Shown here: piece by piece, positions 13,263-26,890 of the stretch
How positions within the stretch are numbered: the stretch's first letter is position 1
Layout of the letters: each line of letters starts with the position of its first letter
Virus record (IMG/VR): IMGVR_UViG_3300013772_000011
Location: 20,722-49,556 of that record
Length of the DNA stretch: 28,835 nucleotides
Reading direction: 5' to 3' (one strand)
Origin: a virus
Notes under the pieces: model-generated
The model's input: the letters and a program-made list of their open reading frames with translations, nothing else
Database searches by the model: none
Told to the model about the DNA's origin: nothing
Translations under genes and position numbers: made by a program

Positions 13263-13439
13263 ATGGCAGACCTTATTGATTGCGCATATGCCGCAGATGC
13301 CGAAGTGGAAGCGGCCATGATTAAAGTTGACGAAGCAAACCGGGCGTTGAAAGAAAAAAAGGAACACGCGGATTCTTTATGGAAAGAGATTCGGAAGTCG
13401 TATCCGCAAAGCGGAATCGTTGTTGGAGTCGTGGTATGA
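13263..13439 (+). CDS. Small helical protein
   Basis: A 58-residue protein with a long charged helix (EVEAAMIKVDEANRALKEKKEHADSLWKEIRKS) likely to form a coiled coil, then a hydrophobic C-terminus GIVVGVVV. The chosen ATG at 13263 follows the upstream stop by 5 nt. Its own stop overlaps the next ATG at 13436 in an ATGA junction. No family is recognised. The coupling to the Tat-leader gene supports it as real. Confidence 0.55.
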   Translation: MADLIDCAYAADAEVEAAMIKVDEANRALKEKKEHADSLWKEIRKSYPQSGIVVGVVV

Positions 13440-13543
13440 CCCGCCGCCAAGCCCTCCGCTCCCTCATCTCCGCCGTAGCCGCGTGCGTGGTCGCGCCATT
13501 CGCCAAGGCGCCGCATCTATCTCAACGATCTCAGAGCAAGTGA
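13436..13543 (+). pseudogene. Truncated Tat-leader gene at the CRISPR boundary
   Basis: The ATG overlaps the upstream TGA. The 35 codons begin MTRRQALRSLISAV and include ACVVAPFAKAP, closely similar in layout to the leader of the 193-residue gene at 846 (RRNFLQATG then IALAPFAPKP). The reading frame runs into the first CRISPR repeat at 13510 and stops there at TGA 13541-13543. The signal-like part is intact but the expected mature domain is missing. I infer that the body was lost or displaced when the adjacent module arrived. A genuine 35-residue leader peptide cannot be excluded. No continuation was found after the module. Confidence 0.5.
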
Positions 13544-13618
13544 CCCACGAGTGCGCTGCCAGATACATTGGACCGTTGGAAGCCGCATCTATCTCAACGA
13601 TCTCAGAGCAAGTGACCC
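13510..13618 (-). CRISPR. One-spacer CRISPR mini-array
   Basis: Two perfect 37-bp direct repeats at 13510-13546 and 13582-13618 (each begins GCCGCATC and ends AAGTGACCC) flank a 35-bp unique segment at 13547-13581. Period is 72 bp. Repeat identity is 37 of 37 while flanking bases differ, so the boundaries are sharp. Repeat and spacer lengths match type V arrays. Internal dyad symmetry is weak (CTC/GAG only). No third copy is found at the next period. The array lies downstream of a minus-strand operon with a Cas12/TnpB-like gene, so minus-strand transcription is the simplest reading, but orientation is not proven. No spacer match was noticed elsewhere in the window. Confidence 0.72.
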
Positions 13619-13805
13619 GCCGCCCTCGCAACCCATGTCGGCATCAACAGAAGCATAACGGTTTGCGCGAGGTGAGGCTTTCAATCGTATCACGAGTGCC
13701 TCATGAAGTAGAAAAACAGACATAATCAATTATGGGTTCAACGCTTCGCGAGGTGATCGGCGTTCATCCACCACGTCGCCGCTCGCAGTCAGGTTGTCAA
13801 AGAGC

Positions 13806-13816
13806 GATAGATTCGG
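13806..13816. ncRNA. Possible anti-repeat segment
   Basis: GATAGATTCGG can pair with CCGCATCTATC of the CRISPR repeat at 10 of 11 positions. It lies between the array and the operon, where a tracrRNA anti-repeat would be expected. The match is short enough to be chance. Confidence 0.3.
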
Positions 13817-13877
13817 GAGTCCCGTTCCGGTGTTGCCACCGATGAGCCCGAGCACTGTTTGGGACGTTCCGGCACTC

Positions 13878-13964
13878 CCTTTCGCGGCCTGCACGAAAGG
13901 TCAACTGCCGCTGGGCCTTGCGGAGGCCCTCAACCCTTGCGGGTGGTCTGACCCCTTCGGGTCA
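13878..13964. ncRNA. Cluster of four hairpins between operon and array
   Basis: The gene-free stretch 13619-13975 ends in four consecutive stem-loops: CCTTTCG/CGAAAGG (13878-13900, 9-nt loop), GGGCCT/AGGCCC (13913-13929), ACCC/GGGT (13933-13944) and TGACCC/GGGTCA (13949-13964). On the minus strand the third loop is GCAA, a GNRA tetraloop, which favours a minus-strand RNA. It follows the stop of the 222-residue gene by 11 nt on that strand. It could be a guide-associated RNA (tracr-like), a terminator cluster or both. The remaining bases of the stretch show a 10-bp direct repeat but no convincing gene. Confidence 0.4.
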
Positions 13965-13975
13965 AAGTTCGATCA

Positions 13976-14644
13976 TCATCCACGGCGCAGTTCGGATAGC
14001 AACTGCTCAAGTTCGCCAATGGAGAGGAAAAGTTTTTTCCCGGCCAGTTCGATCCAGACGCCGCCGGATCGCCGGTCGATCTTGATATTCTTCCGTTTCA
14101 TGGGTCTTGGGGCCGACGCCGGGCGACCCTCGGCCCATGCAACCTGCGGTTCGAAGGCGCGATCGCCAAGAGGCCCGAATACCTGGTCAACGTGCATGGC
14201 AGTCAGATCGGGAAGTGCAATCCATCGACTGGTAAACGAGTCGCGGTCTAAACGAACTGCAACCTCAACCATTCCCTTATCAATGATCTCGGCCTGCCTC
14301 TCCACCGGAAGAACCTTGAACTTGTTCAGTAACAATTTTCCAGTGGTGTACCCTTGGAATCGATGGAATGCCTCGGGAATGATCTTGCCGTTCGCCACCA
14401 GCATCAGGGTTCTGAATTTCTCGGGATACTTTTCGCGGACGTACTTGGGTTCTTCCCCGTGTTTGAGCATCTCCACCAAAAGAGCGGCGGAACGGCACAC
14501 AATTTCAACCGACCAGCCCATCAGCCGATCCCATTCGGCGTGTCGCTCATCGGGCGTCATGGCCGCGTACTGTTTGGCGTACCCGCTCAAATACGAAGGG
14601 CACATTGCTGGAGTCGCCTTTACTTTAATTGCCTGTGATACCAT
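13976..14644 (-). CDS. Unknown protein coupled to the Cas12-like gene
   Basis: A 222-residue protein starting at ATG 14644, inside the last 20 nt of the upstream effector gene, so the two are probably translationally coupled. A longer reading from 14737 would overlap the effector by over 100 nt and is less likely. It is mainly helical, with MTPDERHAEWDRLMGWSVE, CRSAALLVEMLKHGEE, then a block ANGKIIPEAFHRFQGY and LLLNKFKVLPVERQAEI. A basic linker (PRPMKRKNIKIDRRSGG) precedes a C-terminal beta-hairpin and helix (VWIELAGKKLFLSIGELEQLL). No known family is recognised and no Cas1, Cas2 or nuclease motif is present. Position makes it a candidate accessory factor, perhaps nucleic-acid binding given the basic linker; that is inference. 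Confidence 0.7.
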   Translation of the reverse strand: MVSQAIKVKATPAMCPSYLSGYAKQYAAMTPDERHAEWDRLMGWSVEIVCRSAALLVEMLKHGEEPKYVREKYPEKFRTLMLVANGKIIPEAFHRFQGYTTGKLLLNKFKVLPVERQAEIIDKGMVEVAVRLDRDSFTSRWIALPDLTAMHVDQVFGPLGDRAFEPQVAWAEGRPASAPRPMKRKNIKIDRRSGGVWIELAGKKLFLSIGELEQLLSELRRG

Positions 14645-16058
14645 TGCTCTGCTCCTTATTGATTTCTTCAAGGGCCGCGAACATCGCGAGCCACTGTTCG
14701 AGATTCTTGGCGGTTTCAAATTCCTTCTTTCTGGCATCGGACGTTTTCAGGCTGATCCCGCGTTCGCTCAACTTGTATTCGAGCGTAGACCAGAACTTGA
14801 ACCACGGGAAAGACGACACCCACGAACCGTCGTTATCGTCATAGACGACTTCCGAAGCGCGCAGTCGCAACGCCAGTTCGGCAACTTGAGTGCTTTTTTG
14901 GTGAATGAACGAGTCGATTCGGCGGAATTGGCGGTCGCAGATTCGCTCGCGGGCGGATGCCAGAGAAGGTTCGATGCCAACGCGACGTTCAACCTTCTGA
15001 TCGTCGGACATTCGTTGCAGTCTGCGGCGGTGAGCCGCAACCCATTTGCGAACATGATCCTCATGCGACCATCGCTCATTGGACGTTCGACCCATCATGC
15101 GGGCGCGGAGGAAGCTGGTTGGCCCGGTTCTGACAAGCAATGTGCCGGAAAGAACAAAAGCGTTATCTCGTTTCGGAAGCCAGCAGACAATCGTGGCAAC
15201 AACGCGAGTGCCGTTCTTTTGTCCACCGCCGTCCCTGCCCGTGCCAGACGGCCTATGCGTCGAACCGCACTTGGCTTCTCCAATTCGCGACTCCACCTGA
15301 AGCGCCGAACCATCAATGATCTTGTCCATCGCCGAAAGTTGCCTTGCAAAGTGGGCGCGGTTGCCAAGTGGCAGTGTCCATCTGCGTTCGCCAAGCTTGA
15401 AACTGATGGCGACTCGTCCGTCAGCCATTTTGTCGAGGCTGCAAGATTGCGAAGAGAGTGGGAAAGGCTGCTCTCGATAGGTGGGGAGAGACGTAACGCC
15501 ACGATAGATGTCGAACCGCTTGGCGTTGTAAAGTTCCTTTGTCTTCCGGTCGACTATCGACGCCGTTGTCCCCTTAAGGGTAGGAAACAGCGCTCCGATG
15601 GTGTGATAGAGCACGGTGCTGTCCGTGCATTTGCCGGGCCTGCCGAGAATCCTTGTGATGGCATCATTGATTTGCGACTGCGGCAATGGTCCAAGCCTCG
15701 CCTTGCCGTCAGTCACGACAGGAATCCGTACTGCATCGTCCGCCGCGTAAAGCTGGCATGTAACCCAATTCATCGCCTGGCCACACTGCCGCCAAGCAAT
15801 GTGAAGGGATTTCCACAAGTCGCCCCACTCCCCATCAACGATTCCGCTGACCGGGATGGTGATAGCCGCAACCTTGAAATGGGTCTTCCAGCACTGGTCG
15901 CACCAGACCTTCTCTTGGAATCGACGCCACTTTCGAGGAATTGCAACCTCGCCGGTTTTCGTCTTTCGGCCACTCCCGATGTGCGAAGAGTCGATGTCGC
16001 AAACGAACGGAATGGGTTTTGATTTGGACTTCGACTTAGGTTCTTTGGCGGCAATCAT
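14625..16058 (-). CDS. Cas12/TnpB-like effector, RuvC probably inactive
   Basis: A 477-residue protein. ATG 16058 has AGGCG about 7 nt upstream and is preferred to an in-frame TTG at 16073. The N-terminus is Lys/Ser-rich with a CDQC pair. Residues 285-435 align in order with TnpB: strand VVATIVCWLP, the RuvC-I strand LLVRTG (310 is Arg where TnpB has the catalytic Asp in GVDLG), basic helix HVRKWVAAHRRRLQRM, helix CDRQFRRIDSFIHQKS, RuvC-II strand VVYDDND (Asp407 at the usual Glu), and FPWFKFWSTLEYKLSERGI. Only about 40 residues follow; the CxxC...CxxC ribbon and RuvC-III DxNAA block are absent. Families of this fold bind a guide RNA and DNA. Cleavage by this one is doubtful. A two-repeat array lies beyond the partner gene. 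Exact subtype is not assigned. Confidence 0.78.
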   Translation of the reverse strand: MIAAKEPKSKSKSKPIPFVCDIDSSHIGSGRKTKTGEVAIPRKWRRFQEKVWCDQCWKTHFKVAAITIPVSGIVDGEWGDLWKSLHIAWRQCGQAMNWVTCQLYAADDAVRIPVVTDGKARLGPLPQSQINDAITRILGRPGKCTDSTVLYHTIGALFPTLKGTTASIVDRKTKELYNAKRFDIYRGVTSLPTYREQPFPLSSQSCSLDKMADGRVAISFKLGERRWTLPLGNRAHFARQLSAMDKIIDGSALQVESRIGEAKCGSTHRPSGTGRDGGGQKNGTRVVATIVCWLPKRDNAFVLSGTLLVRTGPTSFLRARMMGRTSNERWSHEDHVRKWVAAHRRRLQRMSDDQKVERRVGIEPSLASARERICDRQFRRIDSFIHQKSTQVAELALRLRASEVVYDDNDGSWVSSFPWFKFWSTLEYKLSERGISLKTSDARKKEFETAKNLEQWLAMFAALEEINKEQSNGITGN

Positions 16059-16162
16059 GCTATCGCCTATCAACGCCGCTCCACACGAGTGTTGCTCGCC
16101 AGAAGGCGTCTCGGTGGAACGACGATGAATTGTGAATTAGTGAACTGACGAGCAACGCCATA

Positions 16163-16190
16163 ATTATACGACTGTAGTAAAAACAATCAA
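16163..16190 (-). promoter_or_regulatory. Sigma70-like promoter of the effector operon
   Basis: On the minus strand TTGATT (16185-16190) and a perfect TATAAT (16163-16168) are separated by 16 nt. This predicts a start near 16156 and a leader of about 100 nt before ATG 16058. The whole gap 16074-16257 is AT-richer than its surroundings and also precedes the + strand gene at 16258, so it may be a divergent control region. Confidence 0.6.
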
Positions 16191-25789: not shown

Positions 25790-26890
25790 CTAAGCAACAG
25801 CGGAATGCCGATGCGTTTCCGAAACTTGAAGCCGATTGGCAACGGCTCGTGCCGCCAAATTGATGGCGGCGTTGTGGTCGGCATGGGCCTCATGGCCGCA
25901 CTGCCGACATTTGAAAGACGCTTGAGAAGTTCGGTTGCGTTTATCGCAGTGTCCGCAAGCGGAACAGGTCCGACTGGAATTGCGAGGGTCAACAGCTACG
26001 ACGGGAATACCGAACAATTGGCCCTTGTAGGTGATAAAGGAACGGAGTTGATAGAACGCCCAGCCATTCATCTTCGATCGTTGTCGCTTGCGAAACCGTG
26101 TCCGGTCGCGGATGCCCTTGAGGTTCTCAAGAGCGATGCCGCGTCCGGTGTCTTTAGCCAAAGCAACGATGCGTTTGCTGATGACGTGGTTAACGTCTTT
26201 CCTGAAATTGGATTCTTTTCCACCAATTCGCTTCATGGCGCGGCGAGCATTCTTGCGAGTTCTCCGCTTATGGGAACTGTGCATCTTGCGCCCAAGGCCG
26301 CGATGGATTCGATGGTACTTAATGCGGACGGATTCAACGTTGTCCCCTGCGAATCGTTGCCCATCACTGGTTGCGGCAAGGTTGCTTACGCCCAAGTCAA
26401 CGCCGATGAAATCAGTAACGGGAATCGGGGTCTTGTCGGGAACATCAATGGTGACAAGAAGGAACCATTTCCCGTCTTTTCGGAGAACCAAGTCGCTTTG
26501 GCCCTTGGCAAACCCAAAGCGATCTGCTTGATATTTACCCATCAAGAACGGAACTATGACCCGACCTTCCAGCGTCGATATGCTGACACGATCAACGCCC
26601 TTAAACCCAATATTCTTACCCATCGCAAACGGGACGGCGGCGTGCTTTCGAAAGCGAGGTCGCTTGGTTTTGTCGGGCTTGAATGCCTCGCATGCCCTCG
26701 CGATACACCTAATCGCGGTGTCGGCGGGAAGTCCAAACCGCTCGCGCAGTTCCCGGTAAACCAATTTCTGCAGCGCAAACTTATTAGGAAGTTGTCTTTC
26801 GAATGCAATGCCAGCTACCCACGAAGCCGCCGCATTAAATCTTTCCATCGTTTGCCGAAGCATCATGGATTGGTTCTTGTCGGGGAGCAA
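25790..26890 (-). CDS. tnpB: TnpB, RNA-guided nuclease of an IS605-family element
   Basis: A 366-residue protein with a canonical, apparently intact TnpB. RuvC-I FIGVDLGVSNLAATSDG has Asp165, RuvC-II GIALENL has Glu255, RuvC-III HADHNAAINLA has Asp338, and the zinc ribbon has C309, C312, C328, C331. The N-terminal helical part includes DKNQSMMLRQTMERFN and the QPVFR-like region PRFRKHAAVPF. TnpB uses an omega RNA from the element end to cut DNA beside the element's target motif, helping the element persist. The start is uncertain: TTG at 26890 is used, but the conserved strand TLQIQL continues upstream with no ATG, so a rare start or partial loss is possible. The intact triad contrasts with the effector at 14625. 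Confidence 0.92.
   Translation of the reverse strand: MLPDKNQSMMLRQTMERFNAAASWVAGIAFERQLPNKFALQKLVYRELRERFGLPADTAIRCIARACEAFKPDKTKRPRFRKHAAVPFAMGKNIGFKGVDRVSISTLEGRVIVPFLMGKYQADRFGFAKGQSDLVLRKDGKWFLLVTIDVPDKTPIPVTDFIGVDLGVSNLAATSDGQRFAGDNVESVRIKYHRIHRGLGRKMHSSHKRRTRKNARRAMKRIGGKESNFRKDVNHVISKRIVALAKDTGRGIALENLKGIRDRTRFRKRQRSKMNGWAFYQLRSFITYKGQLFGIPVVAVDPRNSSRTCSACGHCDKRNRTSQASFKCRQCGHEAHADHNAAINLAARAVANRLQVSETHRHSAVA

What the first reader, a model, noticed from the sequence alone, without database searches (positions are those of the whole stretch)
13619..13975. Hairpin cluster between operon and array: possible tracr-like RNA
Within 87 bp are four stem-loops of 4-7 bp, one with a GNRA-type loop on the minus strand, in an otherwise gene-free 357-bp stretch. 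Such density is far above the rest of the window. The order effector, partner, structured RNA, array on one strand is what a self-contained guide-RNA locus would need.
Basis: partly seen in the sequence, partly recalled or inferred. Interest (0 to 1): 0.6.

Follow-up and report, generated by a model that had tools for sequence, protein, structure and literature searches.

The report
Phage dead-Cas12f locus with putative tracrRNA
A temperate phage genome seems to carry its own tiny CRISPR locus (a Cas12f-like protein that has lost its DNA-cutting residues, a likely helper guide RNA and a single-spacer array), which could let the virus bind and switch off chosen DNA without cutting it.

Summary
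The hairpin cluster is real. On the minus strand it lies between a two-gene operon and a mini CRISPR array: two exact 37-nt repeats around one 35-nt spacer (13510-13618). The first gene (16073-14625) is a remote Cas12f/Cas12u3 relative (E 2.5e-7). Aligned to solved Cas12f1 proteins it has lost all three catalytic sites: RuvC-I Asp is Arg, RuvC-II Glu is Asp, zinc ribbon and RuvC-III are missing. The candidate tracrRNA (13975 to about 13806) ends in an anti-repeat, CCGAAUCUAUC, pairing 10 of 11 bases with the repeat's 3' end (0 of 400 shuffles for that end). An upstream hairpin carries GCCGC, a possible short pseudoknot partner, as in type V-F guides. This is supportive, not proof: no homologous locus was found, so covariation could not be tested. 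The second gene is not Cas12-specific; its relatives in phages and plasmids sit beside small zinc-finger genes. No Cas1, Cas2 or Mu transposase was detected. Best reading: a phage-borne, binding-only type V-F-like system that blocks transcription or replication at a target, which was not found. New variant of a known kind. The tracr guess is plausible; the hairpin-density claim is overstated.

The parts
14625..16073 (-). Cas12f/Cas12u3-like effector, 482 aa (start probably ATG at 16058), predicted nuclease-dead; N-terminal C-x5-H...C-x2-C zinc-finger-like motif
   Evidence: PADLOC Cas12u3 E 2.5e-7 and Cas12f E 2.9e-6 over residues 79-266; colinear weak RuvC match 339-448 with catalytic D to R and E to D, TNB and RuvC-III missing
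13976..14644 (-). second gene, 222 aa from ATG 14644, overlaps the effector's end by 20 nt; phage/plasmid family of unknown function
   Evidence: relatives in phages and plasmids at 23-26% identity; homology lies after the 14644 ATG; model pLDDT 73, same fold as phiM12 protein S5MBG8
13806..13975 (-). candidate tracrRNA; true ends unknown
   Evidence: fold, anti-repeats
13806..13816 (-). anti-repeat CCGAAUCUAUC, pairs with GAUAGAUGCGG of the repeat (10 of 11; core AUCUAUC:GAUAGAU)
   Evidence: forms in the free co-fold for 3' ends at 13800 and 13790
13884..13888 (-). short anti-repeat GCCGC in a hairpin, could pair with the last five repeat bases GCGGC (pseudoknot site)
   Evidence: 5 Watson-Crick pairs, helix -8.4 kcal/mol
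13619..13805 (-). stretch between tracr candidate and array; no promoter-like or terminator-like site found on this strand
13582..13618 (-). CRISPR repeat 1 (GGGTCACTTGCTCTGAGATCGTTGAGATAGATGCGGC)
13547..13581 (-). spacer TTCCAACGGTCCAATGTATCTGGCAGCGCACTCGT, 35 nt
13510..13546 (-). CRISPR repeat 2, identical to repeat 1
16163..16190 (-). promoter-like site TTGATT-16-TATAAT upstream of the effector
   Evidence: 10 of 12 matches; 2 sites found in the scan against 1.3 expected by chance

Best explanation
A compact type V-F-like CRISPR locus carried by a temperate phage. It is read leftward from upstream of the effector gene: Cas12f-like protein, a small second protein, a tracrRNA and a one-spacer array. 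The tracrRNA pairs with the 3' part of the repeat (a 7- to 10-bp long duplex, and possibly a 5-bp pseudoknot), the crRNA is matured, and the effector binds the dual guide. Because its RuvC sites are gone it binds matching DNA without cutting and blocks transcription or replication there, as Cas12m and TldR do. Shown: the array, the gene order, the Cas12f relationship, the loss of catalytic residues. Supported but not proven: the tracrRNA and its pairing. Inferred: common transcription, maturation, DNA binding, silencing. The target is unknown.
For: Exact 37-nt repeats with a 35-nt spacer. Cas12u3/Cas12f profile matches and local matches to solved Cas12f1 chains. Losses at all three catalytic motifs. 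Anti-repeat of 10 of 11 pairs to the repeat's 3' end: 0 of 400 shuffles for the last 16 repeat bases (22 of 400 for the whole repeat). Long plus short anti-repeat in the expected order: 31 of 4,000 shuffles, 6 of 804 other stretches of the record. Published V-F guides have a long repeat/anti-repeat duplex plus a 5-7-bp short one in a pseudoknot (PMC11246509). No minus-strand terminator-like site between operon and array. No Cas1 or Cas2 in the record. Cas12m protects by binding rather than cutting (PMC11013384).
Against: Folding is only mildly better than shuffles (z about -1.4). The pairing tests were set up after seeing the matches; the free co-fold shows the long duplex for two of four 3' ends tried; the GCCGC site is partly paired inside its own hairpin and competes with the extended long duplex for the same repeat bases. 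No relatives, hence no covariation. No spacer target in the record, the IMG/VR seed scan, phages, plasmids or fetched loci. The RuvC part of the alignment is weak by sequence alone.
Confidence: 0.6

Rival explanations
1. The locus is a decayed type V-F system: the effector lost its active site by erosion, the array shrank to one spacer, and nothing functions now.
For: Missing RuvC-III and TNB, one spacer, no adaptation genes; no target found.
Against: The 482-aa frame is open, overlaps the next gene by 20 nt, has a GC3 of 0.63 in the range of a coding gene, and the two repeats are identical.
Confidence: 0.15
2. The hairpins are ordinary 3'-UTR structures between convergent genes and have nothing to do with the array; the effector uses the repeat alone or another RNA.
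For: Folding z only about -1.4 on either strand; the first hairpin starts within about 10 nt of the stop of the second gene.
Against: No T-tract terminator on either strand in 13619-13975; anti-repeats in the right order to the right end of the repeat.
Confidence: 0.12
3. The phage uses the dead Cas12 and tracrRNA to disarm a host type V system by sequestering crRNAs (biomimicry anti-CRISPR).
For: Phage-encoded RuvC-dead Cas9 with a tracrRNA is proposed to do this (PMC10910872, PMC11656645).
Against: That Cas9 has no array, whereas here an array with its own spacer is present.
Confidence: 0.07
4. The effector is an interference-defective Cas12 of a CRISPR-associated transposon (CasMu-V kind) and the cassette is, or was, moved by RNA-guided transposition.
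For: CasMu-V effectors are reported to have lost RuvC-III (PMC10910872), and V-F systems in Mu transposons are mentioned (PMC11656645). The array abuts an apparently interrupted Tat-signal-like gene.
Against: No Mu transposase C-domain found, although that search had no positive control; the left-part ORFs scanned include a tyrosine integrase but no transposase; no terminal inverted repeats beyond 8-bp matches.
Confidence: 0.06

Closest known systems
Type V-F CRISPR (Cas12f1, PADLOC Cas12u3)
   Same: Effector sequence in the N-terminal half, gene-tracr-array order, long plus short repeat/anti-repeat pairing
   Different: All catalytic motifs lost, TNB and RuvC-III missing, extra second gene, phage-borne, one spacer
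CasMu-V (V-F-linked Mu transposons, PMC10910872)
   Same: Cas12 that lost RuvC-III, with an array
   Different: No MuA/MuB or transposon ends detected here
Cas12m (type V-M)
   Same: Binding-only silencing is the proposed outcome
   Different: This protein matches Cas12f/Cas12u3 models; Cas12m keeps a full-length RuvC domain with altered residues
TldR (TnpB-like nuclease-dead repressors, PMC13418256)
   Same: Phage-encoded, RuvC-dead, RNA-guided binding as proposed role
   Different: TldR uses a neighbouring guide RNA without a CRISPR array; here an array and a likely separate tracrRNA

Membership tests
CRISPR array | near-identical direct repeats separated by unique spacers | tested here: met
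   two identical 37-nt repeats, one 35-nt spacer; with only two copies spacer regularity cannot be judged
Type V-F (Cas12f) | effector related to Cas12f | tested here: met
   PADLOC Cas12u3 2.5e-7, Cas12f 2.9e-6; weak matches to solved Cas12f1
Type V-F (Cas12f) | RuvC D-E-D triad and TNB zinc ribbon | tested here: not met
   D to R, E to D, TNB and RuvC-III missing
Type V-F (Cas12f) | tracrRNA with long and short repeat/anti-repeat duplexes | tested here: inconclusive
   10-of-11 long and 5-bp short anti-repeats; no expression or covariation data
CasMu-V | Cas12 lacking RuvC-III | tested here: met
CasMu-V | MuA/MuB genes and transposon ends | tested here: inconclusive
   no Mu-transpos_C match, but no positive control rang; no terminal inverted repeats
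Cas12m (V-M) | sequence relationship to Cas12m effectors | tested here: inconclusive
   library scans returned only Cas12u3/Cas12f
TldR | nuclease-dead TnpB with a neighbouring guide RNA and no CRISPR array | tested here: not met
   array present; closer to Cas12f than to TnpB models

The most novel reading that the evidence does not exclude
A temperate phage uses a complete dual-guide CRISPR locus with a naturally dead Cas12f as an RNA-guided transcription regulator, with the co-encoded second protein as a cofactor: the CRISPR counterpart of TldR.
Probability: 0.3. Interest if true: 0.8.

Novelty: new variant of a known kind. Interest (0 to 1): 0.55.

Why it matters
If right, a phage has domesticated Cas12f as a programmable DNA-binding silencer and kept tracrRNA and array although cutting was lost. 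It would link V-F immunity, CasMu-V transposons and TldR regulators, and offer a very small natural binding-only effector.

Tried and rejected
No relatives of the effector in IMG/VR, GenBank phages, PLSDB plasmids or GTDB genomes; the IMG/VR and GTDB scans need near-exact peptides, so distant relatives may be missed. Metagenome contigs could not be scanned. The 17 records reached through related loci hold no Cas12u3 match. Single-sequence structure prediction of the effector failed (mean pLDDT 36). Fold search of the second protein found no convincing solved relative, only the phiM12 protein. Rfam gave nothing. The TnpB at 25790-26890 was considered as a missing C-terminal half of the effector and rejected: it is a TnpB with its own N-terminus. 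The 742-aa plus-strand ORF over the operon has no NCBIfam match and a less coding-like composition. The second protein as a dedicated Cas12 partner: relatives examined in L021, L022, L023 and L028 sit after small zinc-finger genes.

Full report
Setting. The window is bases 20722-49556 of a 49,556-base virus record of unknown completeness. It carries HK97-type head, portal and connector genes; the left part of the record has a tyrosine integrase and a terminase, so a temperate tailed phage is likely. A HYExAFE-family protein is a name I associate with Planctomycetota, so that is a guess at the host, from memory.

Observation. The hairpins are present as described. Their density is high but not unique: by total stem length the stretch is among the top 11 of 2,875 windows of 87 bp (six overlap it), 47 windows have as many separate hairpins, and five of 1,438 windows of 93 nt fold more stably. 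Folding beats dinucleotide shuffles only mildly (z -1.41 and -1.47) and the other strand does as well (z -1.36).

Array. Two identical 37-nt repeats start 72 nt apart, leaving a 35-nt spacer. No further copy exists in the record (next best 23 of 37 bases). An exact 32-base stretch of the repeat was not found elsewhere in IMG/VR.

Effector. The 482-aa protein matches Cas12u3 (E 2.5e-7) and Cas12f (E 2.9e-6) over residues 79-266 and, weakly, solved Cas12f1 chains. Its C-terminal part aligns colinearly with the RuvC domains of Cas12f1 chains 9i8y, 9nzq and 8j1j and of the TnpB elsewhere in this record. At RuvC-I the MGVDLG motif reads LLVRTG (D to R), at RuvC-II IENL reads YDDN (E to D), and the protein ends where the zinc ribbon and RuvC-III should follow. 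The C-terminal similarity is weak on its own (hmmsearch E 0.005 in a one-sequence search), but order and spacing agree with the stronger N-terminal match.

Guide RNA. The best match of the whole region to the complement of the repeat is CCGAAUCUAUC at 13816-13806: 10 of 11 Watson-Crick pairs with GAUAGAUGCGG at the repeat's 3' end. Among 400 shuffles, none reaches this for the last 16 repeat bases and 22 do for the whole repeat. In the fused single-guide version, and in the free co-fold with 3' ends at 13800 or 13790, this duplex forms; with ends at 13806 or 13770 it does not. Upstream, GCCGC at 13888-13884 sits in a hairpin and is complementary to the last five repeat bases; it would give the short pseudoknot of V-F guides (long duplex plus a 5-7-bp short one: PMC11246509; pseudoknot conserved among Cas12 guides: PMC10097598). 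It competes with the extended end of the long duplex, so at most one of the two uses those bases. A joint criterion (at least 7 plus 5 pairs, right order, 20-150 nt apart) is met by 31 of 4,000 shuffles and 6 of 804 other stretches of the record. The criteria were set after seeing the matches, so these figures are optimistic. No terminator-like site lies between operon and array on the minus strand.

Second gene. Its start is most likely 14644, overlapping the effector by 20 nt. Relatives at 23-26% identity to it occur in two IMG/VR phages and an Aggregatibacter plasmid; with one of those as query, further members appear in Sinorhizobium, Rhizobium and Caulobacter phages. In the four examined most closely the gene before it encodes a small zinc-finger protein (L021, L022, L023, L028), not Cas12. 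It may help the effector, but it is not a Cas12-only family.

Mechanism. With an array, a tracr candidate and a Cas12f-like but dead effector, guide-directed binding that blocks transcription or replication is most likely, as shown for Cas12m (PMC11013384) and TldR of prophages (PMC13418256). CasMu-V, whose Cas12 lost RuvC-III (PMC10910872), is the nearest published relative in that respect; no Mu transposase or transposon ends were detected here, though the transposase search lacked a positive control. The spacer has no match in the record beyond itself, no 18-nt seed match in IMG/VR, no significant match in phages or plasmids and none in the fetched loci, so what is targeted is unknown.

Limits. 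No homologous locus was found, so neither conservation nor covariation was tested. I recall reports of naturally dead Cas12f paired with sigma factors, but did not find them in the papers searched, so novelty relative to those is not settled.

Noticed in passing
window 25790-26890 (-): A stand-alone TnpB gene with intact D-E-D motifs and zinc ribbon (guided_TnpB E 2.3e-59), its RuvC part scoring best against Cas12f; no in-frame ATG start seen and no tnpA noticed.
   Followed up: partly
window 13437-13545 (+): A short frame starting MTRRQALRSLISAVAACVVAPFAKA (Tat-signal-like) runs into the distal CRISPR repeat, as if the array had interrupted a phage gene.
   Followed up: no
window 16091-16102 and 16145-16156: A 12-nt inverted repeat (92% complementary) in the leader of the effector gene; possible operator.
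   Followed up: no
L003 2807-3340 (-): HYExAFE-family protein (E 2.6e-12), a possible hint at a Planctomycetota host.
   Followed up: no
L003 13823-15040 (+): BCS1-like AAA ATPase in a phage genome.
   Followed up: no
L021 4265-5573, L022 916-2354, L023 4265-5573, L028 2101-3552: A recurring gene pair in phages and a plasmid: a small zinc-finger, basic protein followed by a relative of the window's second protein; no Pfam family for the latter.
   Followed up: partly
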